From Salipiger bermudensis HTCC2601 (GTDB taxonomy: Bacteria; Pseudomonadota; Alphaproteobacteria; Rhodobacterales; Rhodobacteraceae): a stretch of DNA of 64,000 bases. The notes under the pieces were generated by a model that ran no database searches, was not told the origin of the DNA, and worked only from the letters and a program-made list of their open reading frames with translations. Numbering within the stretch: the first letter of the stretch is position 1; each line of letters begins with the position of its first letter. Shown here piece after piece: positions 10,784-26,009 of this stretch. Location of the stretch: positions 2,629,893 to 2,693,892 of the forward strand of contig NZ_DS022276.1 of NCBI RefSeq assembly GCF_000153725.1. The letters are read 5' to 3'. The position numbers were made by a program, and so were the translations under genes.

Positions 10784-11802
10784 AAGCCTTTCTCGACGAC
10801 CGCCAGTGGCACCACGATCCCAAGCATTTCATGGCCAACGGCAAGGTCTATCCCAGCCCCGAGGAACCGCGCCGGATCGAGGTGCTGAAAGCCGCCGCCG
10901 AAGACGCCGGCTGCGCCTTCGAGGCGCCCCGGGATGCCGGGCTCGGCCCCATCGCGGCGCTGCACTCGCCCGAGTACCTGACCTTCCTGCGCAACATCTA
11001 CACCCGCTGGCAGCGCATTCCCGATGCCGGCCCCGAGGTGATCCCGAACATCCACCCGGCCAACCGTAGCGACGGCTATCCGAAATCCGCCATCGGGCAG
11101 GCCGGCTACCATCAGGCCGACACCGCCTGTCCGATCGCCGAGCACACCTTCGAGGCGGCCTACTGGTCGGCGCAGAGTGCCATCGCCGGGGCCGACCTGA
11201 TCGCGGGCGGCGCGGGGGCGGCCTATGCGCTGTCGCGCCCGCCCGGGCACCACGCCTTCGGTGATCTCGCCGGCGGGTTCTGCTTTCTCAACAATGCCGG
11301 AATCGCCGCCGAGCGGCTGCGCGCGGCAGGTCTGCGGCCTGCGATCCTTGATGTGGACGTGCATCACGGCAACGGCACGCAGGGGATCTTCTACGGCCGC
11401 GATGACGTTCTGACCGTCTCGCTTCACGCCGATCCGGCGCGCTTCTACCCGTTCTTCTGGGGCCATGTGCAGGAGCGCGGCGAGGGGCGCGGCACCGGTT
11501 GCAACCTGAACCTGCCGTTGCCCCGGGGCACCGACGACGTGGCCTACCTCGCGGCGCTGGAGATCGCGCTCGAGCGGGTCGGGAGCTTCGGCACCGAGGT
11601 GCTGGTCGTGGCGCTGGGGCTTGATGCCTCGATCGACGACCCGTTCAAGGGCTTCGCCGTGACGCAGGACGGCTTTGCGCGCATCGGCGCGGCCATCGCC
11701 AAGGCCGGCCTGCCAACGCTCTTCGTGCAGGAGGGGGGCTATCTGAGCCCGTCGCTCGGGGCGAACCTGACACGGACCCTGACCGGCTTTCAGGGCGGCT
11801 GA
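10780..11802 (+). CDS. Acetylpolyamine amidohydrolase (class II HDAC-like deacetylase)
   Basis: A 340-residue zinc deacetylase resembling acetylpolyamine amidohydrolases, which remove acetyl groups from N-acetylated putrescine, cadaverine or spermidine. Catalytic His157-His158 sit in RPPGHHA. Zinc ligands are Asp193 and His195 in DVDVHHGNGTQ plus Asp282 in LGLDASIDDP. The transition-state tyrosine is Tyr321 in EGGY. All active-site residues are present and their spacing closely tracks the well-studied Mycoplana enzyme as I recall it. It is the last gene of the operon and is the main reason to read the transporter as a polyamine or acetylpolyamine importer. Confidence 0.9.
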   Translation: MKAFLDDRQWHHDPKHFMANGKVYPSPEEPRRIEVLKAAAEDAGCAFEAPRDAGLGPIAALHSPEYLTFLRNIYTRWQRIPDAGPEVIPNIHPANRSDGYPKSAIGQAGYHQADTACPIAEHTFEAAYWSAQSAIAGADLIAGGAGAAYALSRPPGHHAFGDLAGGFCFLNNAGIAAERLRAAGLRPAILDVDVHHGNGTQGIFYGRDDVLTVSLHADPARFYPFFWGHVQERGEGRGTGCNLNLPLPRGTDDVAYLAALEIALERVGSFGTEVLVVALGLDASIDDPFKGFAVTQDGFARIGAAIAKAGLPTLFVQEGGYLSPSLGANLTRTLTGFQGG

Positions 11803-11979: not shown

Positions 11980-12013
11980 CCTCGCATTGAATTCACCATT
12001 TTTCTTTGCGAGG
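11980..12013 (+). promoter_or_regulatory. Possible ribosome-site-masking hairpin upstream of the metzincin gene
   Basis: CCTCGCA (11980-11986) is complementary to TGCGAGG (12007-12013), with a 20-base A+T-rich loop. The right arm contains the GAGG ribosome-binding sequence of the gene starting at 12018. If the stem forms it would hide the ribosome site and lower translation. The pairing is direct from sequence; the regulatory role is inferred. Confidence 0.35.
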
Positions 12014-12017
12014 TGTT

Positions 12018-15000: not shown

Positions 15001-15221
15001 AGCTTGATCCGGTGGCGGGCACAGTCGATCTGGCGACCCCGGCGCTGGCGGCTGGCGCCGCCCATGAGCACGTGGTCGACATCCCCCGGCGCTGCTTCCC
15101 CGGTGGCGGCTCGGGCTGTTCCTTCCGCATCACCGCGGATGCGGCCCAGCCCGAGGATGTGGCGGAATCCGACGAGGGCAACAATATCGCGCAGAGCTTC
15201 TGCCCCGGCATCGCGCCATGA
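12018..15221 (+). CDS. Secreted metzincin-type metalloprotease with FG-GAP propeller and CARDB domain
   Basis: A 1067-residue exported protein. Residues 1-23 are a Sec signal peptide. Residues about 24-405 hold seven FG-GAP/integrin-type repeats with calcium-loop motifs such as DIDGDGRDE. A metzincin zinc protease domain follows: HELGHTLGLGH at His592 and a Met-turn VMSY at Met618, giving the full HExxHxxGxxH signature. A proline/Asp-rich linker (PDPDPDPGAP) precedes a C-terminal CARDB-like adhesion domain (STLQLHLRIRNQGDAG). ATG 12018 is chosen because GAGG lies upstream; an alternative TTG at 12006 would add four residues. It stands alone between operons. Likely an extracellular calcium-dependent protease; target unknown. 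Confidence 0.85.
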   Translation: MVRSFHFRLVACFLMAFPASVAADLDRDCRDELVVGRDAGDNHRWFVFGDDPSGYALETRGGDGWGIAREALSVAVGDIDGDGRDEFAVGRDGAASQSVRVLLFDDANAGFGQIASLGNGWGAGRSATAIAFGNVDGDAALEMAVGRDAPDGMRFEIYDDRDANFAVLHTGGSSWGSDRRVTALAFGDVDGDGRDELVVGRSGGAVARPRWIVVDDAAGGFAEMIAAGASWGAGRRVTALATGDVDGDGFDEIAVGRDAGANFHWGVFDGADGNFALLQSGGDGWGTTRETTALALGDLDGDGMDELVVGRNGGSGVRVLTFDDAAAGFRMLEELASGWGVSRGVRAIAVGDPDGDFVDEIAVGRNGGSGPRWFVYDDRLRGFELLQDGGDEWGVGRAVNALAFRAARPSGMDSDVDGLFDVWEQAGIDIDCDGVADFTPPGADPDRKNVYVEMDFMTNHDPDDDAVNDVIAAFATAPVSNPDGSTGIDLVIDQDDQIPEVLDITTWDDVDDIREANFGTAAERADPDADKILAAKALVYRYALYAHARDGGKSSGRAKRGNFVVSLGDGWGRDASGHSVGTRRQQAGTIMHELGHTLGLGHGGGDNVNCKPNYLSVMSYSFQTRHIPNPGATGPRLDYSGLALPDLDESALNEGLGIQDGTDNTIFGTDGSTNVVGAGSGAIDWDQSGGIDAGTVPSDINFTTASACAASPGETLLGFDDWQNLFLPTRSAPGQPLDEVMFPEDEMTAEDAAAIEACATGEDSARCTMPPFEYAAKFVCGVQDDPETLRLTRGVYGTTVNVHNPWDRDALFYKKVAVAYPPAEQAAGDILQMGKDLLRYDEALKVDCEDIREKAFGGRFPTPYVEGFVVIQSFDSLDVTGVYTTAALIDDGAACCGRQDREVRNTGMEIVEIDERRKPRRPDPDPDPGAPDLLPEPVFAPPPSDAPGTLPQNYCGALPAGVPISTLQLHLRIRNQGDAGAGASTTTVLFSPSAQLDPVAGTVDLATPALAAGAAHEHVVDIPRRCFPGGGSGCSFRITADAAQPEDVAESDEGNNIAQSFCPGIAP
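12087..13230 (+). repeat. Seven-unit FG-GAP repeat array inside the metzincin gene
   Basis: Seven units of about 53-54 residues, each with a D-x-D-x-D-x-x-x-E/D loop, then VGRD or VGRN, an aromatic strand (such as RWFVYDD) and a GxGWGxxR turn. Seven units would close one seven-bladed beta-propeller of the integrin-alpha type. The second loop aspartates are altered in unit 1 (DRDCRDE) and unit 3 (NVDGDAALE), so calcium binding may differ there. Confidence 0.8.
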
Positions 15222-15245: not shown

Positions 15246-15971
15246 TCACTTGCGGACGAAGCTGAACGAGAACGCCGAGCCGCGGTGGTAGTCCTTGGCA
15301 AATATCACCCGGGTTCCGTCGTCCGAGAAACAGGTCTCCTCGATCAGCAGCGCGGGGCCGAACTGCTCGAGCTTGTGCAGCTTGGCGACGAGCTCCGGCA
15401 GCATCGTCGCGCTGATATTCGCGGTCGAGGCGATGGGGCGACGGTCCATCTCGGTCAGCATCTCGACGATGGATCCCGCCCAGTCCATGCGGCCCTGCTG
15501 GCCGTCGTGGAACAGGGCGACGGGGATCCAGTCGAGCGAATAGACCAGTGGTTCGCCATTGGCATGACGCAGACGCTCGACCCGCATCACCGGGTCGTCG
15601 ACGGCGATGCCGAGTGCGGCGGCGACCTCGGCATCGGCGGGGATGGTCGAGAAGCCGAGGATGCTGGTCTCGGCGACGTAGCCGTGGCTGCGGACCATGT
15701 CCGAGACGCTCTCGAACTTGGTGATCGGCCGGGCGATGGTCAGCATGGCGCCGGCGGTCACGAAGCGGCCCTTGCCCTGCTGGGCCTCGATGATCGAGTC
15801 CTGTTCGAGCAGCTTCAGAGCCTCCCGCAGGGTCGGGCGGGACACGTGGAAACGCTCGCTCATCTCCTTCTCGGAGGGCAGCTTGTCCCCGAGCGTCAGC
15901 CCGTCGTCGCGGATCATCTCGAGCACGCTGCTCCGCAACCACTCGATGCCGCCGGTCTTCAGCTTCTCCAT
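15246..15971 (-). CDS. GntR family transcriptional regulator (HutC/UTRA type)
   Basis: A 241-residue GntR regulator. The winged HTH covers about residues 10-78 (GDKLPSEKEMSERFHVSR, then PTLREALKLLE), and residues 95-240 form the UTRA effector-binding domain, which often senses sugar phosphates or amino compounds. It is the last gene of the leftward operon after the FrlC-like and asparaginase genes and overlaps the asparaginase end by 13 bases. It is the likely repressor of both divergent operons: TTGT-N3-ACAA motifs occur at both promoters and just upstream of this gene. The position matches FraR beside the Salmonella fructose-asparagine genes. Confidence 0.9.
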   Translation of the reverse strand: MEKLKTGGIEWLRSSVLEMIRDDGLTLGDKLPSEKEMSERFHVSRPTLREALKLLEQDSIIEAQQGKGRFVTAGAMLTIARPITKFESVSDMVRSHGYVAETSILGFSTIPADAEVAAALGIAVDDPVMRVERLRHANGEPLVYSLDWIPVALFHDGQQGRMDWAGSIVEMLTEMDRRPIASTANISATMLPELVAKLHKLEQFGPALLIEETCFSDDGTRVIFAKDYHRGSAFSFSFVRK

Positions 15972-16975
15972 GTTGGCCTCCCTGCTTCGCCTCGCCTGTC
16001 AAACAACTCCGCGATCTGCGCGGGAGATCTTTGCGATGCCAGTGCATATTGCAACAATATTCGGGCTTTTGCCGGGGAAAACCCTGCGGCAGGAAGAAAG
16101 CCGTGGCCCCGGTTGCGGCTGTTGCCGGGCACTCGCCCGAAAGCCTGCGAGGCGGCAATGACGATGCCGCCGCCCTCATGCACCCAGGTCTCGAGCGCCT
16201 TGGCCTGCCGGCTCGTGGCATAGCCCGGTGCGAAGCCCGCGATCACGATCCCGCGGGCCCCTGCGGCGATGAACGCCTCGATTGCGGCGGCGTCGCCGTC
16301 GCTGTGGCAATGCAGGATATCGACGCGGGGGAGGGCGCCGAGCCGATGCCAGGGCAAAAACGGGCCGGGCGCGGCGGAGCGGGCGAAGAGGTCGAGCTCT
16401 GAGCCTGCGAAGCGCCCCAGCGGACCGAACCTGGGCGAGCGGAACGTGTCGAGCGCGCTGTTGTCGAGCTTGGTGACATCACGCGGGTCGTGCAAGACGC
16501 CGTCGAAGGCGACCGCGACCGATCCTCCGAGGCGCTGGTCCGCGGCGGCGGTCAGGGCGTGAAACAGGTTCATCGGCCCATCGGCGCCCTGCGCCGACGC
16601 CGGGCGCTGCGCACCGGTGACCACCAGGGGCACGTCGAGGTCCCAGCACAGGGACAGGAAAAACGCCGCCTCGGCCAGGGCGCCCGTGCCGTGAGTGAGC
16701 ACGAAACCCGAGATCGATGGGGCCTCCTTCAGCGTCGCGGCGCAGGCGGCACAGATTGCGGCCCAGCGCTCGGCCCCCATGTCGAAGCTGGGAGCCGGGT
16801 CGACGGGCACGTTTGTAACGTCGAAGCGCCCGCGCAGCTGCCCGGAGCGCTCGAGCAACGCGTCGGGGGAAAGGCTTCCGGCGTTGCCGTAGTCGTTGAT
16901 TTCAAAAGGATCTTCGGCAAGAGCGGTGATCGTTCCGCCGGCGACGATCAGCCCGATATGCGGCAGGGCGCTCAT
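15959..16975 (-). CDS. Asparaginase-family amidohydrolase with altered substrate pocket (FraE-like)
   Basis: A 338-residue cytoplasmic member of the type I/II asparaginase family, with no signal peptide. The nucleophile threonine (Thr15 in GGTIT), second threonine (Thr97 in THGTG) and lysine (Lys169 in DVTKL) are conserved. However, the residue equivalent to E. coli AnsB Asp90 is Gly98 and that of Gln59 is Phe64 (PAPSFDM). In classical enzymes these two bind the alpha-amino group of asparagine. Their loss fits a substrate whose alpha-amino group is substituted, such as fructosyl-asparagine. It sits between FrlC-like and GntR genes, paralleling fraE. Deamidation of a glycated asparagine is inferred, not shown. 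Confidence 0.88.
   Translation of the reverse strand: MSALPHIGLIVAGGTITALAEDPFEINDYGNAGSLSPDALLERSGQLRGRFDVTNVPVDPAPSFDMGAERWAAICAACAATLKEAPSISGFVLTHGTGALAEAAFFLSLCWDLDVPLVVTGAQRPASAQGADGPMNLFHALTAAADQRLGGSVAVAFDGVLHDPRDVTKLDNSALDTFRSPRFGPLGRFAGSELDLFARSAAPGPFLPWHRLGALPRVDILHCHSDGDAAAIEAFIAAGARGIVIAGFAPGYATSRQAKALETWVHEGGGIVIAASQAFGRVPGNSRNRGHGFLPAAGFSPAKARILLQYALASQRSPAQIAELFDRRGEAGRPTWRS
15996..16006. promoter_or_regulatory. Candidate GntR operator upstream of the regulator gene
   Basis: CTGTCAAACAA matches ten of eleven positions of the TTGTCAAACAA motif found at the divergent promoters. It lies 25 bases upstream of the GntR start, inside the 3' end of the asparaginase gene. It could allow autoregulation from an internal promoter. 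Confidence 0.45.
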
Positions 16976-17802
16976 GCGGCTTGCAGCATTGCTGCGCGGG
17001 CGCTTTCGAGCGGCGTCCGCGGGTCGAGCCAGTAGGCTTGCGACACGAACTCGAAGCTGTAGTCGCCTTGGTAGCCCGCGGCTTCCAACTCGGCGACATA
17101 CTGCGCCAACGGCAGGCTGCCGTCGCCCCAGGCGAGGTGCCCCTCGGGCGTGCCGTCACAGACATGCACATGCCGCAGCGCGTCTCCGAACCGGGCGAGG
17201 TAGTCTGCCGGGGTCTCTCCCGCCGCGGCCATGGCATTGAGGTCGAGGATGGCGGCGACCTGCGGCGAAGCGAGCTCGGCCATCATGCGGGCGAGCTCGG
17301 CACTGGTGGTGATGAGGTTCGACTCCGTCCGCGAGAGCGGCTCGAGCAGCAGCGTGACACCCTCTCTCGCGGCTTCGTCGGCGAGCGCGCCGAGCTGGTC
17401 TCGGGCGCGCTCCCACGCATCGGAGGCGGGAGCGTCGGCATAGCCCCACCCCGCCGTCACCAGCAGCTGCCGGCAGTCGAGCGAGGCGGCGCCATGCAGG
17501 GCCCTGCGGAAGTAGTCGAAACTACGGCGCGCGGTGCCGGGATGCTCTGAAGCGAGGTTGATCGGGTAGACGCACTGCTCGGGTGTGAAGCAGCTGAGCG
17601 AGAGATCACGGGCGGCGATCATGCGCCGCACATCGCGGAGTTCCGTGGCGGAGGCGTCATCGAGGCTGAGATGCGGCATGCCTGCCCAAAGTTCGATCCG
17701 TGCAAAGCCGAGCGCCGCCGCATCGTCAAGGAATCGCGTCAGGCTGTGACGGAAATAATGGATGTTCATGGCGGCCAGCCTGCTGGACAATGTCTGCGAC
17801 AT
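16972..17802 (-). CDS. Sugar epimerase, TIM-barrel, FrlC-like (fructoselysine 3-epimerase family)
   Basis: A 276-residue AP-endonuclease-2-fold isomerase. It resembles FrlC, which interconverts psicoselysine and fructoselysine: shared blocks include FTPEQCVYPINLA, LLLEPLSRTESNLI (metal-binding Glu) and GDALRHVHVCDG followed by GDGSLPL. Length equals the 276 residues recalled for E. coli FrlC. GGGAG eight bases upstream supports the start at 17802 over an internal Met at residue 13. First gene of the leftward operon, overlapping the asparaginase start by four bases. It probably brings the 3-epimer of the imported Amadori compound into the main pathway. Confidence 0.85.
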   Translation of the reverse strand: MSQTLSSRLAAMNIHYFRHSLTRFLDDAAALGFARIELWAGMPHLSLDDASATELRDVRRMIAARDLSLSCFTPEQCVYPINLASEHPGTARRSFDYFRRALHGAASLDCRQLLVTAGWGYADAPASDAWERARDQLGALADEAAREGVTLLLEPLSRTESNLITTSAELARMMAELASPQVAAILDLNAMAAAGETPADYLARFGDALRHVHVCDGTPEGHLAWGDGSLPLAQYVAELEAAGYQGDYSFEFVSQAYWLDPRTPLESARAAMLQAA

Positions 17803-17823
17803 GAGGCGACTCCCTTTGATGTA

Positions 17824-17834
17824 TTGTTTGACAA
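17824..17834. promoter_or_regulatory. Candidate GntR operator for the leftward operon
   Basis: TTGTTTGACAA, the exact reverse complement of TTGTCAAACAA found at 17954, lies 22 bases upstream of the FrlC-like start codon. The core is a TTGT-N3-ACAA inverted repeat of the size GntR dimers bind. A repressor bound here would block the leftward transcript start. Confidence 0.55.
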
Positions 17835-17922
17835 CATAAGGTCACCACTCGGGGCTGCGCGCAAGTATTATCCTTGTTTACATGGGTGTAATCGAAATTC
17901 ACCCAGGAAATCCAAAAGCCGA

Positions 17923-17964
17923 TTGACAGTGCTCGGAGCTTTATGCTGGTATCTTGTCAAACAA
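17923..17964 (+). promoter_or_regulatory. Promoter and candidate GntR operator for the rightward operon
   Basis: A consensus -35 TTGACA (17923-17928) is followed after 18 bases by TGGTAT (17947-17952) as a -10. Directly after it comes CTTGTCAAACAAG (17953-17965), a perfect inverted repeat with a CAA centre, placed over the expected transcription start. This is the textbook geometry for repression. An extra dyad, GGGTG-N11-CACCC, lies just upstream at 17884-17904. Confidence 0.55.
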
Positions 17965-18016
17965 GTTGAAAGATCTGCCAGCGAAAGAGTGGTGCGATCG
18001 TTCGGAAAGGTCAGGG

Positions 18017-18769
18017 ATGTCGGTGATGGATGCGGAGCAGGACGGGATCAGCTTCCGGAAGGTGAATAAGTGGTTCGGCCGGATGCATGTCCTTCGCGAC
18101 ATCGATCTGGGTGTCGCGAAAGGTGAGAAGGTCGTGGTCTGTGGTCCCTCGGGGTCGGGAAAGTCGACGATGATCCGCTGCATCAACCGCCTCGAAGAGC
18201 ACCAGTCCGGCACCATCCTCGTCGATGGAATCGAGGTCAATGACAACAAGGTCAACATCGGTCAGGTGCGCGAGCGCGTCGGCATGGTGTTCCAGAACTT
18301 CAATCTTTACCCGCACCTGACCATTCTCGACAATTGTACTTTGGCGCAGCGCTGGGTGCGCGGCCGGTCACGGGCCGAAGCCGAGGAGCGCGCGATGCAC
18401 TACCTGGGCCGGGTGCGCATTCCGGACCAGGCCAACAAGTATCCCAGCCAGCTTTCGGGTGGCCAGCAGCAGCGCGTGGCCATCGCGCGTTCGCTGTGCA
18501 TGTCTCCTGACATCATGTTGTTTGACGAGCCCACATCGGCGCTCGACCCGGAGTTGGTGCGCGAGGTGCTCGACACCATGGCAGAACTGGCCTCGGAAGG
18601 CATGACGATGGTCTGCGTGACCCACGAGATGGGCTTCGCCCGGCAGGTCGCCGACCGCGTCATCTTCATGGATCAGGGGGCCGTGGTCGAAAGCGCTCCG
18701 CCGCAGGAGTTCTTCGACGCGCCGAAAGAAGAGCGCACGCGGCGCTTCCTCAGCCAGATCCTGCACTGA
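18017..18769 (+). CDS. Amino-acid-type ABC transporter ATP-binding protein (GlnQ-like)
   Basis: A 250-residue ATPase of the polar amino acid uptake family. Walker A is GPSGSGKST, the signature LSGGQQQR, Walker B IMLFDEP and the H-loop CVTHEMGF. The ATG at 18017 (MSVMDAEQ) with GGTCAGGG upstream is preferred over an in-frame ATG at 17954, which lies on the candidate operator; MDAEQ at 18026 is also possible. First gene of the rightward operon, followed by the receptor and two permeases. It powers import of the presumed fructosyl-amino acid. Confidence 0.9.
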
Positions 18770-18787
18770 TTTCTCACCGGATTGTCA

Positions 18788-18808
18788 CCGGCCCAAAAAG
18801 AAGGCCGG
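18788..18808 (+). other. Intercistronic stem-loop before the receptor gene
   Basis: CCGGCC (18788-18793) and GGCCGG (18803-18808) form a six-pair stem with a nine-base A-rich loop, between the ATPase and the receptor genes. No T-run follows. It may protect or separate the downstream mRNA. Confidence 0.4.
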
Positions 18809-18869
18809 GATCGCGGCGGCGCGTCCGCCCACTTCCACAGATTACGTCCATAACAACAGGGAAATACTC

Positions 18870-19700
18870 ATGAAAACGACCTTTACCTCTGCCCTCGCGC
18901 TGCTGGTCGCGGGGCTCGCCGCGGCCCCGGTTGCCGCCCAGGACTTTCCGCCGCTGCCTGCCTCGATCGAGGAGCAGGGCGTTCTTCGCATCGGCGTGAA
19001 ATGCGACAGCCCGCCCTTCGGCGCCTCGGGTATCGACGGCACCCCGATCGGCATCGAAGTCGAGATGGCCAAGAAGATCGGCGAATACGCCTTCGGCTCG
19101 GAAGAGGGCGCCGAGCTCTCCTGCGTGACCTCGGAATCGCGCATCCCCTCGCTCAATTCGGGCAAGATCGACCTGATCCTTGCCACGCTGGGCCGCTTCC
19201 CGGCGCGCGAGGAAGTCATCGACTTCTCGAACATCTACTTCTGGGGCACCTCGAACGTGCTCGTGCCGGTCGACAGCCCGGTGCAGGAGCTTTCGGATCT
19301 TGCCGGCGAGACCCTGCTGATCGTCAAGGGCGGCTCGCAGATCCGGTGGCTCGAGGAGAATATCCCCGACATCGAGATGATGCAGCTCAACACCACCGCC
19401 GACGGCATCCAAGCGCTGCTGCAGGGCCGCGCCGCGGGCTATGTGGGTGACGGCGGCCTGATCTACACGCTGGCGGGCAACTACGACCAGCTGCGCGTGG
19501 TCGAAGAGGGGCTCGACCTCGGCGTGAACGGCATCGGGCTGCGCAAGGACGAGCCGGAACTCATGGCCTTCGTCAACGCGGCGCTGGACCAGCTTCGTGC
19601 CGAGAACTTCTACGAGACGGTGATCACCGAGTTCGTCGAAGAGCCCGCGGTCGCAGACGTCATGACGCGCGGTTTCACCGAAGAGCCGCCGCAGATGTAA
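18870..19700 (+). CDS. Amino-acid-type ABC transporter solute-binding protein
   Basis: A 276-residue periplasmic receptor of SBP family 3. A Sec signal peptide ends at AAPVAAQ (about residue 24). The mature protein shows VLRIGVKCDSPPFG and later NSGKIDLILATLGR and FSNIYFWGTSNVLV, typical of the polar-amino-acid/opine group. The gene sits between its ATPase and two permeases. A strong hairpin follows it. Substrate is inferred from the downstream and divergent FrlBCD-like enzymes as a glycated or N-substituted amino acid. Confidence 0.9.
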   Translation: MKTTFTSALALLVAGLAAAPVAAQDFPPLPASIEEQGVLRIGVKCDSPPFGASGIDGTPIGIEVEMAKKIGEYAFGSEEGAELSCVTSESRIPSLNSGKIDLILATLGRFPAREEVIDFSNIYFWGTSNVLVPVDSPVQELSDLAGETLLIVKGGSQIRWLEENIPDIEMMQLNTTADGIQALLQGRAAGYVGDGGLIYTLAGNYDQLRVVEEGLDLGVNGIGLRKDEPELMAFVNAALDQLRAENFYETVITEFVEEPAVADVMTRGFTEEPPQM

Positions 19701-19711
19701 GCTGTTGCATC

Positions 19712-19742
19712 GCGCGAGGGAGGCGGACCGCCCCCCTCGCGC
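19712..19742 (+). other. Strong intercistronic hairpin after the amino-acid receptor gene
   Basis: An inverted repeat of 31 bases: GCGCGAGGG (19712-19720) pairs with CCCTCGCGC (19734-19742), with an inner GGCGG/CCGCC pair separated by one A. Only one internal mismatch (A/C) interrupts the arms. It begins 12 bases past the receptor stop and lacks a T-run. Likely a 3' stabiliser or partial terminator that raises receptor mRNA over permease mRNA. Confidence 0.7.
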
Positions 19743-19782
19743 CCCTGATACCTCCAAGACGCAAGAGCGGACCAATTCCACC

Positions 19783-20445
19783 ATGATCGACTGGGCCTAT
19801 ATCTGGGCAGCGGTGCCGGACCTTATGCGGGGTCTGGGCATGACGCTGATCGTCAGTTTCCTCGCCATCCTGTTCTCACTGATCGGCGGGGTGATCGGCT
19901 GCGCGCTGCGTGTCTCTCCGATCAAGCCGCTGAGTTGGCTGGTGGCGGGCTATGTCGAGTTCATTCGCGGCACGCCCTACCTGGTTCAGGTCTTCTTCGT
20001 CTTCTACGGTCTTCCCAGCCTCGGGCTGCGGCTGTCGATCTTCTGGTCGGGCGTGGTGGCACTGTCGCTCTGGGCCAGCGTCTTCCATATCGAGAGCTTC
20101 CGTGCGGGGCTGTCTTCGGTCAGTAAGGACATCCGCAACGCCTCGGCCTCGCTCGGCCTGCGGCGCTGGCATCACGGGCTCTTCGTGGTGCTGCCCATCG
20201 CGGCGCGCTCGGCGTTGCCCTCGACGCTGAACACCATCGTGTCGACGATCAAGAACTCGGCCTACCTGCAGGCGATCGGCCTTGTCGAGCTGACCTTCGT
20301 CGCGGTCGACCGGATCGCCTACGAGTTCCGCTCGATCGAGATGTTCCTGTCGATCTGCGTGATCTACCTCGCCGTCGTCCTCGTGGTCTCGACCCTTGGC
20401 CATCGTCTCGAACGCCGGCTCGACCGGCCCTATGCGGGGCGCTGA
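19783..20445 (+). CDS. Amino-acid-type ABC transporter permease
   Basis: A 220-residue HisM/GlnP-type membrane subunit with about five spans. The family pattern FIRGTPYLVQVFFVFYGLP and the EAA-like loop SVSKDIRNASASLGLRRW are clear. The ATG at 19783 (MIDWAYIW) is chosen; the longer in-frame extension to 19705 would start inside the intercistronic hairpin. It pairs with the next permease, separated by three bases. Confidence 0.9.
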   Translation: MIDWAYIWAAVPDLMRGLGMTLIVSFLAILFSLIGGVIGCALRVSPIKPLSWLVAGYVEFIRGTPYLVQVFFVFYGLPSLGLRLSIFWSGVVALSLWASVFHIESFRAGLSSVSKDIRNASASLGLRRWHHGLFVVLPIAARSALPSTLNTIVSTIKNSAYLQAIGLVELTFVAVDRIAYEFRSIEMFLSICVIYLAVVLVVSTLGHRLERRLDRPYAGR

Positions 20446-20448
20446 ACC

Positions 20449-21180
20449 ATGTCGCTGCTCTACGAATATCGCGTCTTCCTCTTTTCCGGCTTCGTCCAGA
20501 CCCTGCTGATGTCTCTGGTCGTGGCGCTCGGGACCACCGCCGTCGCCATCCTGCTTGTCGCAATGTTGCAGTCGAAGCTTCGTCTCGTCAGTCGGCTCGG
20601 CTATGCGCTGGTCGAGGTGCTGCGGGACATCCCGCTGATGGTCAACGTGCTGATGGTCTACTTCATGCTGCCGCTGATCGGGCTGGGCTTCGGGCCGTTC
20701 TGGTCGGTCTGCGTCGCCATCTCGATCTGGGGCGGGGCGAACGGGGCGCAGATCCTGCGCGCCGGGCTGCACTCGGTTGGCCAGGGCCAGCGCGAGACCG
20801 CCGCGGCCTTCAACTTCGGTCCGGTGAAGACCCTGTTCCTGATCGTCCTGCCGCAGGCCATGCCGGTGATCCTGCCGCCCTATATCAGCCTGATGACCGC
20901 CGTGGTGCAGGCAACGTCCCTCGGTGCCGTGGTCGGCGCGACCGAGCTGCTGCGGGCCGGGCAGATCCTCATCGAGCAGACCACCATCATGCGCGGCGGC
21001 AGCCCTGCCTACCTGGTCTACGGTTCGATCCTCGTCGTCTACTTCGTTCTCTGCAGCCTGATCTCCTTTGTCGGCGCCCGTCTCGAGGCCTATTACCAGC
21101 GCCCGTACCGGACCGACGCCAGCCGCAAGATCGATGCCAGGGCGCACGAGATCGAAGCCACGGTGCAGACCAGCGCATGA
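20449..21180 (+). CDS. Amino-acid-type ABC transporter permease
   Basis: A 243-residue second permease of the same importer, with about five spans. VLRDIPLMVNVLMVYFMLP is the counterpart of the RGTP segment, and SVGQGQRETAAAFNFG is the ATPase-contact loop. Its stop overlaps the start of the MmgE/PrpD gene, linking transport to the catabolic enzymes in one transcript. Confidence 0.9.
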   Translation: MSLLYEYRVFLFSGFVQTLLMSLVVALGTTAVAILLVAMLQSKLRLVSRLGYALVEVLRDIPLMVNVLMVYFMLPLIGLGFGPFWSVCVAISIWGGANGAQILRAGLHSVGQGQRETAAAFNFGPVKTLFLIVLPQAMPVILPPYISLMTAVVQATSLGAVVGATELLRAGQILIEQTTIMRGGSPAYLVYGSILVVYFVLCSLISFVGARLEAYYQRPYRTDASRKIDARAHEIEATVQTSA

Positions 21181-22556
21181 CCTCTGCGGCCCTCATATCG
21201 CCCTCGCTCGACACCGGCCTCGCCCGGCTTGTCGCGGCGCCCGTGACCGAGACCGAGCGGCTCGCTTCGACGGCGACGATCTGCGACACGCTCGCGGTCG
21301 CGCTGGCGGGGGCGGCTGACCCGCGCGCCTCTGCACTGCTGGCGACACTGGCCGGTGGACCGGTGCAGGCGCCGGGCTGCGCGCGCGGCTTGGCGGCGGT
21401 GGATGCGGCGCTCTGGTTCGGGCTCTGCGCCCACCTCTTGGATTACGACGACGACGAGACCGAGCGCGCCATGGCGCATCTTTCGGTGCCCTGCCTCGCA
21501 GCGTCCCTTGCGCTTGCGGGGGATGACGGCGCGCTGCTGGCAGAGGCCTATGTCACTGGTTGCAAGGCCATGCTGATGCTTGGCGCGGCATGGAACCCGG
21601 CGCTGCACGGCGCGGGCTGGCATCCGAGCTCGGTGCTGGGCGTGTTCGGAGCGGCGGCCGCCGCGTCCCGGATGCTGGCGCTGTCCGAGGCGCAAAGCGT
21701 CGAGGCGCTGCGGCTTGCAGCGGCGCTGGCCTCGGGCACGCGCGGTGCCTTCGGGGGCATGGGCAAGCCGCTGCAGGTGGGGCAGGGCGCGGCCTCGGGG
21801 CTGCGCTGTGCCATGCTCGCCGCGCGAGGTTGGCAGGGCAGCACCGAAAGCCTGGACGGTCTCGCCGTGGCGCTCTTCGGTCGGTCAGGGCGGCTGCCGG
21901 AGGAGCAAGCGCCGGAATTCCCGCCGCAGGGCTTCGTCACCAAGCTCTACCCCAGCTGCACCGCGACCCACGCCGCGATCCACGCGGTGCTGACGCTTCG
22001 TGCCGCCCGCCCGGGCGCGATCCCGGCCCGGATCCGCGCCGGCCTCGACCCGCGTGCGCTGGCGATCCTGATCCCGCACAGGGCGCGCACCGGCGACGAG
22101 GGGCGGTTCTCGCTGGGCTATTGCCTCGCCGTCGCCGCTGCCACGGGCGCGGTCACGCTCGAGGCCTTCGAGGCGGCGGCCTTCGACGATGCCTTGCCCG
22201 CCGACCCGCAGGTGCGGGCGCTGCTCGACCGGATCGAGGTCGTAGAGGCTGATGATCTGCCGTTCGGACCCAGCGGCATCGCCACCGGCGCTCATGTGGA
22301 GATTCTGTGGCCGGACGGGGGCACCGACGGCCTGACCGTCGACGCCGCCCCCGGCAGCCGCGCACTGCCCGCGCGATCCGAGGCGCTCGAGGCCAAGTGG
22401 CACGACTGCCTCGCGCGCCATGCAGGGGCGGAGGCCGCAACCGGGCTGTTGCCGCTCCTGCGCTGCGCCACGCAACCCGGAGGGATCGCCGCCTTGCGCG
22501 CCGCCCTCGCTGACCTCCCCCAATTTCAAGGCAAGGAAGAATGCAGAATTCCGTAA
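21177..22556 (+). CDS. MmgE/PrpD family protein (possible iminodisuccinate-epimerase-like enzyme)
   Basis: A 459-residue member of the MmgE/PrpD family, which includes 2-methylcitrate dehydratase, cis-aconitate decarboxylase and iminodisuccinate (IDS) epimerase of Agrobacterium. Motifs seen: HLLDYDD near residue 85, GWHPSSVLGVFGAAAAASRM near residue 145, FGGMGKPLQVGQGAASG and VTKLYPSCTATHAAI. It overlaps the next gene, a C-N lyase, by 16 bases. In Agrobacterium IDS breakdown, an MmgE/PrpD epimerase works with a C-N lyase to give fumarate and aspartate, so the pair here probably handles an N-substituted aspartate. A propionate (methylcitrate) role is unlikely: no prpB or prpC is present. Confidence 0.85.
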   Translation: MTSAALISPSLDTGLARLVAAPVTETERLASTATICDTLAVALAGAADPRASALLATLAGGPVQAPGCARGLAAVDAALWFGLCAHLLDYDDDETERAMAHLSVPCLAASLALAGDDGALLAEAYVTGCKAMLMLGAAWNPALHGAGWHPSSVLGVFGAAAAASRMLALSEAQSVEALRLAAALASGTRGAFGGMGKPLQVGQGAASGLRCAMLAARGWQGSTESLDGLAVALFGRSGRLPEEQAPEFPPQGFVTKLYPSCTATHAAIHAVLTLRAARPGAIPARIRAGLDPRALAILIPHRARTGDEGRFSLGYCLAVAAATGAVTLEAFEAAAFDDALPADPQVRALLDRIEVVEADDLPFGPSGIATGAHVEILWPDGGTDGLTVDAAPGSRALPARSEALEAKWHDCLARHAGAEAATGLLPLLRCATQPGGIAALRAALADLPQFQGKEECRIP

Positions 22557-24040
22557 GTTCCCGTCTGGCCGAGGCGACCGCGCCGGAAGTGGCGCAGACG
22601 ATCTATGCCCCGCCGATGCGCGGCTTCGATGCCGCGGCGCTCGAGCGCATGTGCGCGCTCAACGAGGCGCACGCGCTGATGCTGGCCGAGCGCGGCCTGA
22701 TCGCCCGCGACACTGCCGAGGCGATCCTCAGGGGCATCGCGCAACTCCGTGCCGAGGGTCCGGAGGCCATCGACCTCGATCCGCAGTTCGAGGACAGCTA
22801 TTTTGCCTTCGAAAACCGTCTCGGGCAGGTGATCGGCAGACCCGCCGCGGGCTGGCTGCACATCGGTCGCAGTCGCAACGACATCGGCTCCACCATCGAT
22901 CGCATGACCACCCGCGAGTGGTGCCTGCACCTGCTGGCGCAGCTCAACGTGGCGCGTCAGGCCTGCCTCGAGGCGGCCGGGCGCCACGCGGACACGGTGA
23001 TGCCGGGCTACACCCACCTGCAGCCCGCGCAGCCGATCACCTTCGGCTACTACCTCGCCAACGTGGCGCGCGGGATGGAGCGCGAATACGATCGCGTCGC
23101 GGCGGTCTATCCGCGGGCCGACGATTGCGCGCTGGGCTCCGCCGCCTTCGCAGGCACCTCGTTCCCCATCGACCGCGACATGACGGCCTCGCTTCTGGGC
23201 TTTGGCAATATCGCGACGCCGGGCCTCGACGCCGTGGCATCGCGCGATTTCGTCACCGAGCTTCTCTGGGCGGTGACCAGTTGCCAGGTGCTGCTGTCGC
23301 GGGTCGCGCAGGATCTCTACACCTTCACCACCTGGGAGTTCGGCACCCTGCGCTTTCCCGATGGCGTCGCCGGCACCTCGTCGATCATGCCGCAGAAGAA
23401 GAACATGCTGCCGCTCGAGTTCTTCCGGGCAGAGGCCGGTCGCAGCATCGGCGCGCTTGCCGGAGCGCTCTCGGCGGTGAAAGGCTCGAACTATTCCATC
23501 GGGCTCGACAGTGTCCGCGAGGGCCTGAGCGATGCGTGGCCGGTGTTCCAGCGCTTTGCCGACGCTCTGCCGCTGCTGCGCCTGGTGTTCGAGACCGCCG
23601 AGCCCGACACCGACATGCTGCTGGCCCGCTGCTCGGCCAACTTCTCGACCGCGACCGACGTGGCCGACGGGCTGGTGCGCGAGCACGGCATCTCGTTCCG
23701 CGAGGCGCATCACGTGGTCGGGCGCGCCGTGCAGATGGTAATCGCGCGCGGCGCCGATGCCTCGGGGCTTGACGTGGCGACCCTCAATGCCGCCGCCGAG
23801 GCCGAGATCGGCCGTAGCTTCGAGATCGCCGAAGACACGCTCCGTGGCTGGGCCGATCCGGCCTCGGCGGTGGCAAGCCGCGTGGTCACCGGCGGGCCTG
23901 CGCCCGCTCCGATGCGGGACATGCTCGACGGCATGACCGCGAAACTCGCGGCTGACGCTGCGGCGCTCGATACCCGCCAGACCCACCTGCGCGACAGCGC
24001 GCACCAGCTTTCGGAGCGGATCTCGGCCTTCCTCGGCTGA
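22541..24040 (+). CDS. Argininosuccinate-lyase-like C-N lyase (aspartase/fumarase superfamily)
   Basis: A 499-residue lyase of the fumarase/aspartase superfamily. The three signature regions are HIGRSRND (107-114), GYTHLQPAQP (156-165, general acid/base region) and TSSIMPQKKN with the catalytic serine loop at Ser280-Ser281. True argininosuccinate lyases continue GRSRND with Gln and MPQKKN with Pro-Asp; here Ile and Met-Leu follow, pointing to another substrate. Family precedents include EDDS lyase and the IDS C-N lyase, which release fumarate from N-substituted aspartates. No arginine-biosynthesis genes are nearby. It probably cleaves a C-N bond of an imported aspartate derivative. Confidence 0.85.
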   Translation: MQNSVSSRLAEATAPEVAQTIYAPPMRGFDAAALERMCALNEAHALMLAERGLIARDTAEAILRGIAQLRAEGPEAIDLDPQFEDSYFAFENRLGQVIGRPAAGWLHIGRSRNDIGSTIDRMTTREWCLHLLAQLNVARQACLEAAGRHADTVMPGYTHLQPAQPITFGYYLANVARGMEREYDRVAAVYPRADDCALGSAAFAGTSFPIDRDMTASLLGFGNIATPGLDAVASRDFVTELLWAVTSCQVLLSRVAQDLYTFTTWEFGTLRFPDGVAGTSSIMPQKKNMLPLEFFRAEAGRSIGALAGALSAVKGSNYSIGLDSVREGLSDAWPVFQRFADALPLLRLVFETAEPDTDMLLARCSANFSTATDVADGLVREHGISFREAHHVVGRAVQMVIARGADASGLDVATLNAAAEAEIGRSFEIAEDTLRGWADPASAVASRVVTGGPAPAPMRDMLDGMTAKLAADAAALDTRQTHLRDSAHQLSERISAFLG

Positions 24041-24081
24041 GCCCGCGCCACCCTCACGCCCCGCAGGGCAAACCCCGCCGT

Positions 24082-24127
24082 CCCGATGATCGGGCGGTGA
24101 ACGCTAGAGCTATGCCCGTGGACGGGC
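24082..24127 (+). other. Two small intercistronic hairpins before the deglycase gene
   Basis: CCCGAT-G-ATCGGG (24082-24094) and GCCCGT-GG-ACGGGC (24114-24127) are each perfect dyads in the 106-base gap between the lyase and deglycase genes. Loops are very short and no T-run follows. They may mark an mRNA processing point. Confidence 0.35.
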
Positions 24128-24146
24128 GAACTGCAAAGGACTGATC

Positions 24147-25160
24147 ATGCTCAATTTTGACGAAGCCCGCTTTCTCGAGATCCAGGGCGGCGCCGTGGCG
24201 CTGGCGCCGCGCATCGATGCGGTGATTGCCGAGGCGATCTCGGCCGGGGCGACCAATCTCTACTTCCTCGGCACCGGTGGTGTTGCCTACCTGATGGAGC
24301 CCGCCGTGCAGCTGCTGCACCGCCGCTCGGGGTTTCAGGTGTTCAAGGACTACCCCGCCGAGGTGGTGCTGACCGGCACCGCCAACCTCACCGACAAGTC
24401 CATCGTGGTGATGCCGTCGCTCTCGGGCACGACGAAGGAGAGCGTCGCGATGCTCGAGAAGGTCAAGGAGATCGGCTGCACGCTGATCACGCTGGTGGGG
24501 CACGCCCAGACGCCGCTCGGCCTTGGGGGCAACCCGGCGCTGGTGAACTTTGCCGAGGACGACACGTCGTCGGAGTCCTTCTACATCCAGTCGCTGCTCA
24601 TCGCGCTTTCGGTGATGAAGGCCCGCGGAGAGATCGACAATTACGACGCGCTGGTCGCCGAGATGCAGACCGTGCCGCAGGCGCTGCTCGACGCCAAGCG
24701 CGCCTTCGAGCCGAAGGCCGAGGAGTATGCGAGCATCATCGCGGGTGCCGACTATCACATGTTCACCGGCGCCGGGAACATGTGGCCCGAGGCGCTCTAC
24801 TATGCGACCTGCATCCTCGAGGAAATGCAGTGGATCCGCACCCGCCCGGTGCACGCATCGGACTTCTTCCACGGCCCGCTGGAGCTGATCGAGACGGGCG
24901 TGAGCCTCATTCTCTTCCGCGGCGAGGATGCCTATGATGCTCTGGCAGAGCGCGTGGCGCAGTTCGCGCCGCAATACACCGACCGCTTCACCGTGCTCGA
25001 CGTCGCAGAATTCGCGCCGCGCTCGCTATCGGAGGAGATGCGCGCGCTGCTCTCGCCTGCCATGATGGCAACGCTGCTCGAGCGGCTGAGCGCCCATCTC
25101 GAGGTGATGCGCGACCACCCGCTGGTGACCCGCCGCTATTACAAGCGCGTCGCCTACTGA
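24147..25160 (+). CDS. SIS-domain sugar-amine deglycase (FrlB/FraB-like)
   Basis: A 337-residue protein with two SIS domains, resembling FrlB/FraB deglycases that split 6-phosphofructose-amino acids into glucose 6-phosphate and the amino acid. SLSGTTKES forms the sugar-phosphate loop (residues 91-99). Glu226 and His242 (in FFHGPLE) lie 16 residues apart, as do the catalytic Glu214/His230 recalled for FraB. The C-terminus RRYYKRVAY closely echoes the FrlB end. Separated from the upstream lyase by 106 bases and followed by a strong terminator. This is the key evidence for an Amadori pathway. Confidence 0.87.
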   Translation: MLNFDEARFLEIQGGAVALAPRIDAVIAEAISAGATNLYFLGTGGVAYLMEPAVQLLHRRSGFQVFKDYPAEVVLTGTANLTDKSIVVMPSLSGTTKESVAMLEKVKEIGCTLITLVGHAQTPLGLGGNPALVNFAEDDTSSESFYIQSLLIALSVMKARGEIDNYDALVAEMQTVPQALLDAKRAFEPKAEEYASIIAGADYHMFTGAGNMWPEALYYATCILEEMQWIRTRPVHASDFFHGPLELIETGVSLILFRGEDAYDALAERVAQFAPQYTDRFTVLDVAEFAPRSLSEEMRALLSPAMMATLLERLSAHLEVMRDHPLVTRRYYKRVAY

Positions 25161-25169
25161 TGTTCTGAC

Positions 25170-25198
25170 GGGGCCCGGTGCGATGCCGGGCCCCTTTT
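25170..25198 (+). terminator. Intrinsic terminator between deglycase and kinase genes
   Basis: GGGGCCCGG (25170-25178) pairs perfectly with CCGGGCCCC (25186-25194) around a seven-base loop, followed at once by TTTT. This is the cleanest rho-independent terminator in the window, yet the kinase gene of the same pathway starts only 17 bases later. It should reduce kinase transcription relative to the deglycase unless read through. Confidence 0.85.
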
Positions 25199-25214
25199 CC
25201 TGCCGGAGACCTTC

Positions 25215-26009
25215 GTGACCAGACTTCGACTTGCTGCCGCCGGTGACAATTGCATCGATCGCTTCCTGACCCGCAAGATCGCCCGTGTCGGGGGCAACGG
25301 GCTGAACGTCGCCGTGAACTTCGCGCTCGCAGGGCATGGCTCGGCCTATTTCGGCGCGGTTGGAGACGACGCGGACGGGCGCTGGACCCGCGCCGAGCTG
25401 AAGGCGAGGGGGGTGGACGTCGACCATCTCGAGATCCGGCCCGAGCCGACCGCCTACACCGACATCGCGCACACGCCGGAAGGCGACCGCCGGTTCCTGT
25501 TCGAGGAGTTCGGCGCGAGCGGTGCCTATTTCCCCTCCGACGAGGCCGTGGAGACGCTCGGGACGATACAGCATCTGCATCTGGGGCTGCTGCATGGCAG
25601 CGAAACGCTGGTGGCCTCTCTCGCGGGAGGCGGGGCGACGATCTCGGTCGATTGTGCCGTGAACCCGTTGCCATTGCCGGTCGATGTGGCCTTCGGCTCT
25701 GTCGGTGAGGATCTGGCGGCGGCGCTCAGCGAGCGCGATCGCCTGCTGGCAATCGGCCACCGGCTGGTGATCGTGACCCGGGGCGCCGACGGCGCCATCG
25801 CCTCGGACGGCCAGAGCAGCTGGTCCGTGGCCGGCAAGCCGATCCGCCCGGTCGATACCACGGGCGCGGGAGACAGCTTCATCGCTGGCTTCATCGCGTG
25901 CTGGAAGGAAACGGGAGACGTGGCGGCCGCGCTCGACGCCGGGACCGAGCGCGCCGCGGTAACCTGCATGACGCTCGGGGGCTTTCCGCAGGACGGGCGC
26001 GCGTTCTAG
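25215..26009 (+). CDS. PfkB-family kinase, FrlD-like (fructoselysine 6-kinase family)
   Basis: A 264-residue ribokinase-fold sugar kinase. It shares the FrlD-type N-terminus GDNCID and GGNGLNVAVN, and the PfkB C-terminal signature DTTGAGDSFIAGF with the catalytic aspartate. Length matches E. coli FrlD (about 261). It uses a GTG start at 25215 with CCGGAGA upstream. Expected role: ATP-dependent phosphorylation of the imported fructosyl-amino acid at C6, before the deglycase step. Located after the terminator and convergent with the next operon. Confidence 0.87.
   Translation: MTRLRLAAAGDNCIDRFLTRKIARVGGNGLNVAVNFALAGHGSAYFGAVGDDADGRWTRAELKARGVDVDHLEIRPEPTAYTDIAHTPEGDRRFLFEEFGASGAYFPSDEAVETLGTIQHLHLGLLHGSETLVASLAGGGATISVDCAVNPLPLPVDVAFGSVGEDLAAALSERDRLLAIGHRLVIVTRGADGAIASDGQSSWSVAGKPIRPVDTTGAGDSFIAGFIACWKETGDVAAALDAGTERAAVTCMTLGGFPQDGRAF

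What the first reader, a model, noticed from the sequence alone, without database searches (positions are those of the whole stretch)
15246..26009. Amadori-compound catabolic cluster joining FrlBCD-like enzymes with an asparaginase and a C-N lyase/epimerase pair
Seen: FrlC-like epimerase, FrlB/FraB-like deglycase with Glu226/His242 at the family spacing, FrlD-like kinase, an asparaginase, a UTRA-type GntR regulator and an amino-acid ABC importer. Known: Salmonella fra (fraR, fraB, fraD, fraE) degrades fructose-asparagine; E. coli frl degrades fructoselysine. Unusual here: an MmgE/PrpD protein and an argininosuccinate-lyase-like protein are encoded within the same operon. Inference: glycated asparagine is deamidated, then the fructosyl-aspartate is either phosphorylated and deglycated, or split by the lyase to fumarate and a fructosamine. 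I know of no described pathway with this full set.
Basis: partly seen in the sequence, partly recalled or inferred. Interest (0 to 1): 0.88.

Follow-up and report, generated by a model that had tools for sequence, protein, structure and literature searches.

The report
Glycated-asparagine operon with added C–N lyase
This bacterium carries a self-contained set of genes that probably lets it eat sugar-damaged asparagine, and unlike the known pathways it seems to include an enzyme that cuts the amino acid off as fumarate, a step that could be tested directly in ordinary laboratory strains.

Summary
In detail: 15246-26009 encodes a UTRA-GntR regulator, asparaginase, FrlC-like epimerase, amino-acid ABC importer, MmgE/PrpD protein, argininosuccinate-lyase-like protein, FraB-like deglycase and PfkB kinase. 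It is one unit: MmgE and lyase overlap their upstream genes, and two of only three exact TTGTCARACAA sites in the 5.48-Mb genome lie in the divergent intergenic region. The cluster recurs on plasmids of Cereibacter, Rhodobacter capsulatus and Agrobacterium; a separately assembled set with two such lyases occurs in Ammoniphilus (Bacillota). The lyase is not ArgH: a true ArgH lies elsewhere, and the lyase falls outside the ArgH clade, nearest EDDS lyase among solved structures. The operon asparaginase has Gly where EcAII has Asp90, in the window and six related loci but in no other asparaginase-like sequence examined, which suits an Nα-substituted asparagine. MmgE is optional. Best reading: fructosyl-asparagine is deamidated to fructosyl-aspartate, which the lyase splits to fumarate plus fructosamine, then phosphorylated and deaminated to glucose-6-phosphate. 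The substrate is well supported by context; the lyase step is inferred and untested. A new variant of fra/frl catabolism.

The parts
15246..15971 (-). GntR/UTRA regulator (FrlR-like role)
   Evidence: Pfam GntR + UTRA; 63% identical to the R. capsulatus and 47% to three rhizobial FrlB-cluster regulators
15959..16975 (-). Asparaginase-fold amidase with HGTG in place of HGTD (EcAII Asp90 to Gly); no obvious signal peptide, so probably cytoplasmic (by eye)
   Evidence: Pfam Asparaginase N/C; alignment with orthologues and classical enzymes
16972..17802 (-). FrlC-like sugar isomerase/epimerase
   Evidence: AP_endonuc_2; best NCBIfam fructoselysine 3-epimerase, below cut-off
17824..17834 (-). Operator-like TTGTCAAACAA, site 1 (just upstream of the FrlC start)
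17954..17964 (+). Operator-like TTGTCAAACAA, site 2 (upstream of importer)
   Evidence: one exact and one near-match site at the same place in C. sphaeroides strains, R. capsulatus and three rhizobial FrlB-PfkB clusters
18026..18769 (+). Amino-acid (PAAT-type) ABC importer, ATPase (start codon chosen by me)
   Evidence: scanned from 17954
18870..19700 (+). Solute-binding protein, family 3
19783..20445 (+). ABC permease 1 (start codon chosen by me)
   Evidence: scanned from 19705
20449..21180 (+). ABC permease 2
21177..22556 (+). MmgE/PrpD protein, iminodisuccinate-epimerase-like; one catalytic His kept, second base Tyr145 is His here
   Evidence: best solved match 2hp0/2hp3 IDS epimerase; alignment
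22541..24040 (+). C-N lyase of the argininosuccinate-lyase superfamily, not ArgH; nearest solved relative EDDS lyase
24147..25160 (+). FraB/FrlB-like SIS deglycase with Glu226/His242
25170..25194 (+). Terminator-like GC hairpin between deglycase and kinase genes
   Evidence: 1 found, 0.2 expected from shuffles
25215..26009 (+). FrlD/FraD-like PfkB kinase, GAGD motif present

Best explanation
A sporadic, probably horizontally acquired, GntR-controlled operon for catabolism of N-glycated asparagine (fructosyl-asparagine). Proposed route: the ABC importer takes up fructosyl-asparagine; the specialised asparaginase (Asp90 lost, so a free alpha-amino group is no longer clamped) deamidates it to fructosyl-aspartate; the EDDS/IDS-lyase-like enzyme cleaves this N-substituted L-aspartate by elimination into fumarate and fructosamine (1-amino-1-deoxyfructose); the PfkB kinase makes fructosamine 6-phosphate; the FraB-like SIS enzyme converts that to glucose 6-phosphate and ammonia. 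The FrlC-like protein would bring 3-epimeric sugars in; the MmgE/PrpD protein would epimerise the alpha carbon of D-aspartate-derived adducts for a stereoselective lyase. Shown: gene content, synteny, operator-like sites, active-site residues, non-ArgH phylogeny. Inferred: every substrate and the order of lyase and kinase. Confidence that the operon degrades a glycated asparagine/aspartate is about 0.75; the number below is for the full scheme with the lyase acting on fructosyl-aspartate or its 6-phosphate.
For: Lyase directly upstream of the FraB-like gene in each window-type cluster opened (window; L020 and L132, near-copies, C. sphaeroides 2.4.1 type; L131 KD131; L134 IL106; L130 R. capsulatus; L133 Agrobacterium). 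Searching from the asparaginase gives 10 plasmid records, all 10 also lyase records. Separate assembly in Ammoniphilus: regulator, two PfkB, importer, FrlB, asparaginase, lyase, FrlC, lyase, regulator on one strand; its lyases group with unlinked Bacillota enzymes rather than with the window type. Both hosts hold a separate better ArgH (605 bits; 679 bits). Nearest solved structures: EDDS lyase by sequence and by fold, IDS epimerase, FraB. EDDS lyase adds many primary amines to fumarate to give N-substituted L-aspartates (PMC12363623, start of abstract; passages). Asparaginase Asp90 to Gly in the window and 6 of 6 other window-type loci (two are near-copies; 4 species in all), Asp in all 9 other distinct asparaginase-like hits (4 of them GatD-like) and in 4 of 4 others from the order. 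Operator-like pair.
Against: In Salmonella the kinase and FraB act on fructosyl-aspartate without a lyase (PMC4941530, passages), so kinase plus deglycase would suffice. Close FraB-like orthologues (57-81%) in five opened rhizobial/Paracoccus clusters have no lyase in view, nor has an 83% one on a short contig of G328. Most relatives of the lyase are not near frl genes. Asparaginase also sits beside ArgH-type lyases in two erythrobacters (L085, L087), so that neighbourhood alone is not telling. In C. sphaeroides the kinase belongs to the adjoining Amadori cluster, and in IL106 it is matched only in two pieces. The Ammoniphilus asparaginase keeps Asp90, so its loss is not required; whether Salmonella FraE keeps it was not tested. 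No docking or assay was done; model residues 316-324 of the lyase are poorly predicted.
Confidence: 0.5

Rival explanations
1. Classical fra route plus a side branch: asparaginase, kinase and FraB-like enzyme degrade fructosyl-asparagine to aspartate and glucose 6-phosphate, while epimerase and lyase act on another imported N-substituted aspartate (iminodisuccinate-like, or a natural aminopolycarboxylate).
For: Nearest solved relatives are IDS epimerase and EDDS lyase; an MmgE/lyase pair occurs without frl genes in G1469 (L179); importer-plus-lyase clusters without frl genes exist (L045, L125, L126, L127, L180).
Against: MmgE is dispensable while the lyase stays beside FraB in the clusters opened; the lyase recurs with frl genes in a distant phylum, with no MmgE match in that locus (L046; the rest of that genome was not searched for MmgE); one importer and one pair of operator-like sites serve everything.
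Confidence: 0.25
2. Detoxification valve: kinase and FraB are the main route, and the lyase removes fructosyl-aspartate or the toxic 6-phosphofructosyl-aspartate before it builds up.
For: 6-P-F-Asp is growth-inhibiting in a Salmonella fraB mutant (PMC4941530, passages); a hairpin separates deglycase and kinase genes in 5 of 5 loci folded (window, Agrobacterium, three rhizobial), which could keep kinase output low.
Against: The rhizobial clusters have the hairpin but no lyase; other intergenic stretches folded in the same call are as stable (for example lyase-FraB in the window), and only the window hairpin was tested with the terminator scan.
Confidence: 0.13
3. The lyase is a second, ordinary argininosuccinate lyase that happens to sit in an frl operon.
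For: Passes the TIGR00838 cut-off; annotated argH in public records.
Against: Separate ArgH in the genome; outside an ArgH clade supported 100/99; lacks the Tyr and Gln that all 18 ArgH rows carry at columns 320 and 326 (those rows were labelled ArgH by that motif, so the count is partly circular).
Confidence: 0.04
4. Chance neighbourhood of unrelated catabolic genes.
For: The family is sporadic: lyase at E<=1e-95 in 3 of 394 family genomes.
Against: Overlapping genes, shared operator-like sites, and conserved order across genera.
Confidence: 0.02

Closest known systems
Salmonella fra operon, fructose-asparagine catabolism
   Same: FraB-like SIS deglycase (best solved match), PfkB kinase, asparaginase; a FraR regulator in Salmonella is recalled
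   Different: ABC importer instead of FraA; FraE is periplasmic in Salmonella (PMC4941530 passages), the window asparaginase shows no obvious signal peptide and has lost Asp90; adds FrlC-like epimerase, C-N lyase and MmgE protein
E. coli frl / B. subtilis frlBONMD-frlP
   Same: FrlB, FrlD, (E. coli, recalled) FrlC-like proteins and a FrlR repressor; B. subtilis uses an ABC importer
   Different: No asparaginase or lyase gene named in the B. subtilis operon (PMC12632257 passages; E. coli recalled); different importer family
Iminodisuccinate degradation, Agrobacterium tumefaciens BY6 (IDS epimerase + stereoselective C-N lyase)
   Same: MmgE/PrpD epimerase-like protein paired with a C-N lyase on N-substituted aspartates; IDS epimerase 2hp0 is the best solved match
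   Different: Here embedded in an Amadori operon; the window protein has His where IDS epimerase has Tyr145 (KD131, IL106 and Agrobacterium orthologues have Tyr). The 2004 paper itself is not held; known from its title and a summary in PMC7347537 passages
EDDS lyase, Chelativorans sp. BNC1
   Same: Fold, signature motif SSIMPQKKN, fumarate-side residues; non-ArgH side of the tree
   Different: 32% identity; Asp290 and Tyr320 of EDDS lyase are Leu290 and Ile320 here, Gln159 is His159

Membership tests
fra/frl Amadori catabolic operon | SIS-family 6-P deglycase with the Glu/His catalytic pair | tested here: met
   E226/H242 aligned to FraB; 82 bits to the fructoselysine-6-P deglycase model, below its cut-off of 430, so the family is met and the equivalog is not
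fra/frl Amadori catabolic operon | PfkB kinase with GAGD motif in the cluster | tested here: met
   in C. sphaeroides and R. capsulatus the kinase lies past the regulator, in C. sphaeroides within an adjoining Amadori cluster
fra/frl Amadori catabolic operon | Growth on, and induction by, a fructosyl amino acid | not testable with these tools
   needs culture
fra (fructosyl-asparagine) operon | Dedicated asparaginase acting on fructosyl-asparagine | tested here: inconclusive
   Asparaginase present, Thr and Lys motifs kept, Asp90 lost; activity not tested
Argininosuccinate lyase (ArgH) | Groups with true ArgH | tested here: not met
   ArgH clade 100/99 excludes it; it does pass the TIGR00838 score cut-off
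Argininosuccinate lyase (ArgH) | ArgH-specific Tyr/Gln (columns 320, 326) | tested here: not met
   Ile320/Arg326 in the window; Tyr/Gln in 18 of 18 ArgH rows; role on the arginine side recalled
EDDS/IDS-type C-N lyase | Superfamily signature and fumarate-binding residues | tested here: met
   R112, N113, S280/S281, K286, N288 as in EDDS lyase
EDDS/IDS-type C-N lyase | EDDS-lyase amine pocket (Q159, D290, Y320) | tested here: not met
   H159, L290, I320; pocket residues named in PMC12363623 passages
IDS epimerase | Two bases, H99 and Y145 | tested here: inconclusive
   H99 equivalent in the window and orthologues; Y145 is His in the window, Tyr in KD131, IL106, Agrobacterium; residue roles from PMC7347537 passages
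Class 1 bacterial asparaginase | Thr-Tyr-Thr-Asp-Lys catalytic set | tested here: not met
   Asp (EcAII D90) is Gly in the window and 6 of 6 other window-type loci; the other four appear kept

The most novel reading that the evidence does not exclude
A separate chemistry for breaking Amadori compounds: elimination from the amino-acid side (C-N lyase releasing fumarate and leaving free fructosamine) instead of oxidation or deglycation from the sugar side, served by an asparaginase re-specialised for Nα-glycated asparagine through loss of a residue considered invariant, and by an epimerase that makes both enantiomers usable; assembled at least twice, in Alphaproteobacteria and Bacillota.
Probability: 0.45. 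Interest if true: 0.76.

Novelty: new variant of a known kind. Interest (0 to 1): 0.63.

Why it matters
If true, the C-N bond of a glycated amino acid can be opened by a lyase without oxygen and possibly without forming the toxic 6-P-fructosyl-aspartate. It would give natural substrates to two enzyme families known from synthetic chelators (EDDS, iminodisuccinate), expose a set of genes misannotated as argH, and offer an asparaginase with predicted selectivity for glycated asparagine. R. capsulatus SB1003 and C. sphaeroides carry the genes, so it is testable now.

Tried and rejected
Ordinary ArgH: rejected. FrlB as an exclusive partner of the lyase: rejected; close orthologues occur without it. 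General linkage of this lyase family with frl genes: rejected. So linkage rests on two lineages. Asparaginase-like neighbours of ArgH in methanogens (L051, L053, L057, L064; 23-25% identity) are set aside as GatD-like, my judgement. A TTGTCARACAA match in Ammoniphilus (L155) lies inside a regulator gene and is discounted; one in another FrlB locus (L014/L029, G194) was not followed. Klebsiella CP125156.1 was opened to see a fraE-type asparaginase; that locus is a PTS-type cluster with no asparaginase, so FraE stays untested. The promoter scan found no sigma-70 site in the divergent region. Of the 10 plasmid records with lyase identity of 60% or more, 5 were opened; of the 155 FrlB-like plasmid records, 6 were opened by way of that query.


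Full report
Observation. The window region 15246-26009 holds two divergent transcription units. Leftward: FrlC-like epimerase, asparaginase and UTRA-GntR regulator, overlapping by 4 and 13 bases. Rightward: amino-acid ABC importer (four genes), MmgE/PrpD protein, argininosuccinate-lyase-like protein, FraB-like SIS protein and PfkB kinase; MmgE overlaps the permease by 4 bases and the lyase overlaps MmgE by 16.

The lyase is not ArgH. It passes the argH model (335 bits, cut-off 279.5), but the genome has a much better ArgH elsewhere (605 bits). In a 44-row maximum-likelihood tree the 18 ArgH rows form one side of a branch (100/99) and the window lyase falls with 25 others, among them EDDS lyase. 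Its best solved relatives are EDDS lyase by sequence and by Foldseek on an AlphaFold model (mean pLDDT 84.7). Fumarate-side residues are conserved, while the pocket for the leaving amine differs from both ArgH and EDDS lyase: Leu290 for Asp, Ile320 for Tyr, and Arg326 where ArgH has Gln. I labelled the ArgH rows by the QEDK-type motif seen, so residue counts against them are partly circular; the tree grouping and the host's own ArgH are not.

The MmgE/PrpD protein is closest to IDS epimerase among solved structures (110 bits). The His base is kept; the second base, Tyr145 in IDS epimerase (PMC7347537, passages), is Tyr in KD131, IL106 and Agrobacterium and His in the window. It is optional: R. 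capsulatus SB1003 has only about 93 bases between permease and lyase across the plasmid origin, and C. sphaeroides 2.4.1 keeps a 76-residue remnant that matches three stretches of the KD131 protein.

Conservation. The set recurs on plasmids of C. sphaeroides KD131, IL106 and 2.4.1, R. capsulatus SB1003 and Agrobacterium sp. 33MFTa1.1; the last has every window component, kinase and epimerase included, with asparaginase and regulator turned round. In C. sphaeroides the kinase and an FrlC-like gene lie in an adjoining Amadori cluster, and in IL106 that kinase is matched only in two pieces. Because these were found through the lyase, its constancy is partly by selection; but the asparaginase query gave 10 plasmid records, all 10 also lyase records. 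The family is sporadic: FrlB-like matches in 11 of 390 genomes of the order, none in the 4 other members of the genus listed; lyase at E<=1e-95 in 3 of 394 genomes of the family, one of them (G980) without FrlB in view, and in the Neorhizobium family draw 2 of 247 at E<=1e-90, both without FrlB in view. A draw from the class gave 13 of 385 at E<=1e-75, a mix of ArgH and non-ArgH.

Independent assembly. In Ammoniphilus sp. YIM 78166 (Bacillota) one strand carries GntR-UTRA, two PfkB kinases, an amidohydrolase, a UPF0047 protein, an amino-acid ABC importer, an MFS transporter, FrlB-like deglycase, type II asparaginase, lyase, FrlC-like epimerase, second lyase and GntR-UTRA. The host has a separate ArgH (679 bits). 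The FrlB is only 26% and the asparaginase 32% identical to the window's, and the two lyases group with unlinked Bacillota enzymes (95/93) rather than with the window type (100/100), which favours a second recruitment. The branch that gathers all seven linked rows is weakly supported (85/57) and also holds 12 unlinked rows, so a single older linkage with losses is not excluded. Among 398 genomes of that phylum, 10 had a lyase at E<=1e-85 and none of the 9 others showed FrlB in the stretch fetched.

Asparaginase. EcAII uses Thr12, Tyr25, Thr89, Asp90 and Lys162 (PMC8256714, passages); Asp90 is described as invariant in all L-asparaginases and critical for binding canonical substrates (PMC6667453, passages). 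The window enzyme and those of six other window-type loci (R. capsulatus, Agrobacterium, and four C. sphaeroides-type loci of which two are near-copies) read HGTG instead of HGTD. The 9 other distinct asparaginase-like hits in the loci at hand, Ammoniphilus included and four of them GatD-like, and four from other genomes of the same order, read HGTD. That Asp90 contacts the substrate's alpha-amino group is recalled. Losing it fits a substrate whose alpha nitrogen bears a sugar. Ammoniphilus shows that the loss is not obligatory, and Salmonella FraE was not examined.

Regulation. A palindrome TTGTCARACAA occurs at 17824-17834 and 17954-17964; with one mismatch allowed the window has 4 matches against 0.47 expected. 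These two are 2 of 3 exact matches in 5.48 Mb; the reversed control pattern gives 2. The third lies near a GntR-FCD gene. One exact and one near-match site stand at the same place in the C. sphaeroides strains and R. capsulatus, and in the FrlB-PfkB clusters of three rhizobial plasmids whose regulator is 47% identical. Agrobacterium has only divergent versions (TTGTCAGACGA, TTGTCAGACGT) upstream of asparaginase and no match within two mismatches before the importer; the Paracoccus stretch has none. So the regulator appears to belong to FrlB-kinase gene sets in general, with asparaginase and lyase as additions. FrlR repressors are proposed to sense phosphorylated Amadori compounds (PMC12632257, passages).

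Mechanism. An importer, an amidase apparently tuned to an N-substituted asparagine, a lyase of a family that releases fumarate from N-substituted aspartates (EDDS lyase; PMC12363623, start of abstract and passages), and a kinase/deglycase pair point to fructosyl-asparagine. The likeliest order is deamidation, elimination to fumarate and fructosamine, phosphorylation, and FraB-type conversion of fructosamine-6-P to glucose-6-P and ammonia. Elimination after phosphorylation is equally compatible with the genes. In Salmonella the deglycase works directly on 6-P-fructosyl-aspartate, whose build-up is toxic (PMC4941530, passages), so the lyase is not needed in principle; its place beside FraB in four species and its probable second recruitment are the argument that it acts on the same metabolite. 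A hairpin lies between deglycase and kinase genes in the 5 loci folded; it may hold kinase expression down, though other intergenic stretches folded there are as stable.

Novelty. In the ten searches made (open-licence PMC only, listings mostly capped) I saw no paper that joins a C-N lyase to Amadori catabolism. The parts are known families; the combination and the predicted reaction appear new, so this is a new variant of fra/frl catabolism.

Noticed in passing
L132 9774-10004 (C. sphaeroides 2.4.1 plasmid pB): MmgE gene reduced by internal deletions to a 76-residue in-frame remnant that still overlaps the lyase start, while strains KD131 and IL106 keep the full gene.
   Followed up: yes
L134 790-1426 (C. 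sphaeroides IL106 plasmid): The fructoselysine-kinase-like gene of the neighbouring Amadori cluster matches only in two pieces in different frames and is not annotated as a gene.
   Followed up: no
window 25170-25194: Terminator-like hairpin between deglycase and kinase genes; unrelated hairpins at the same place in Agrobacterium and three rhizobial clusters.
   Followed up: partly
L049 (uncultured Selenomonadaceae): DcuA/B-type transporter, asparaginase, non-ArgH lyase and aspartase/fumarase-type lyase in a row: a possible fumarate-generating cluster.
   Followed up: no
L045, L125, L126, L127, L180: Amino-acid ABC importer with a related lyase but no frl genes in view: perhaps uptake of other N-substituted aspartates.
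   Followed up: partly
L179 (G1469) 8046-10831: MmgE/PrpD protein beside a non-ArgH lyase without frl genes in view, a candidate iminodisuccinate-type pair.
   Followed up: partly
G000:C6:3668009-3668019: Third exact copy of the operator-like motif in the genome, next to a GntR-FCD regulator gene of another subfamily.
   Followed up: partly
plasmids collection: FrlB/FraB-like genes (E<=1e-30) on 155 plasmid records, 82 of them Enterococcus, which suggests that Amadori catabolism travels widely on plasmids.
   Followed up: no
window 12006-15221: 1071-residue FG-GAP repeat protein; the translation also shows a zinc-protease-like motif (HELGHTLGLGH, by eye) upstream of the operon.
   Followed up: no
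window 9381-11802: BKACE (beta-keto acid cleavage) gene and, after a small ORF, a histone-deacetylase-like gene, apparently a separate catabolic cluster.
   Followed up: no
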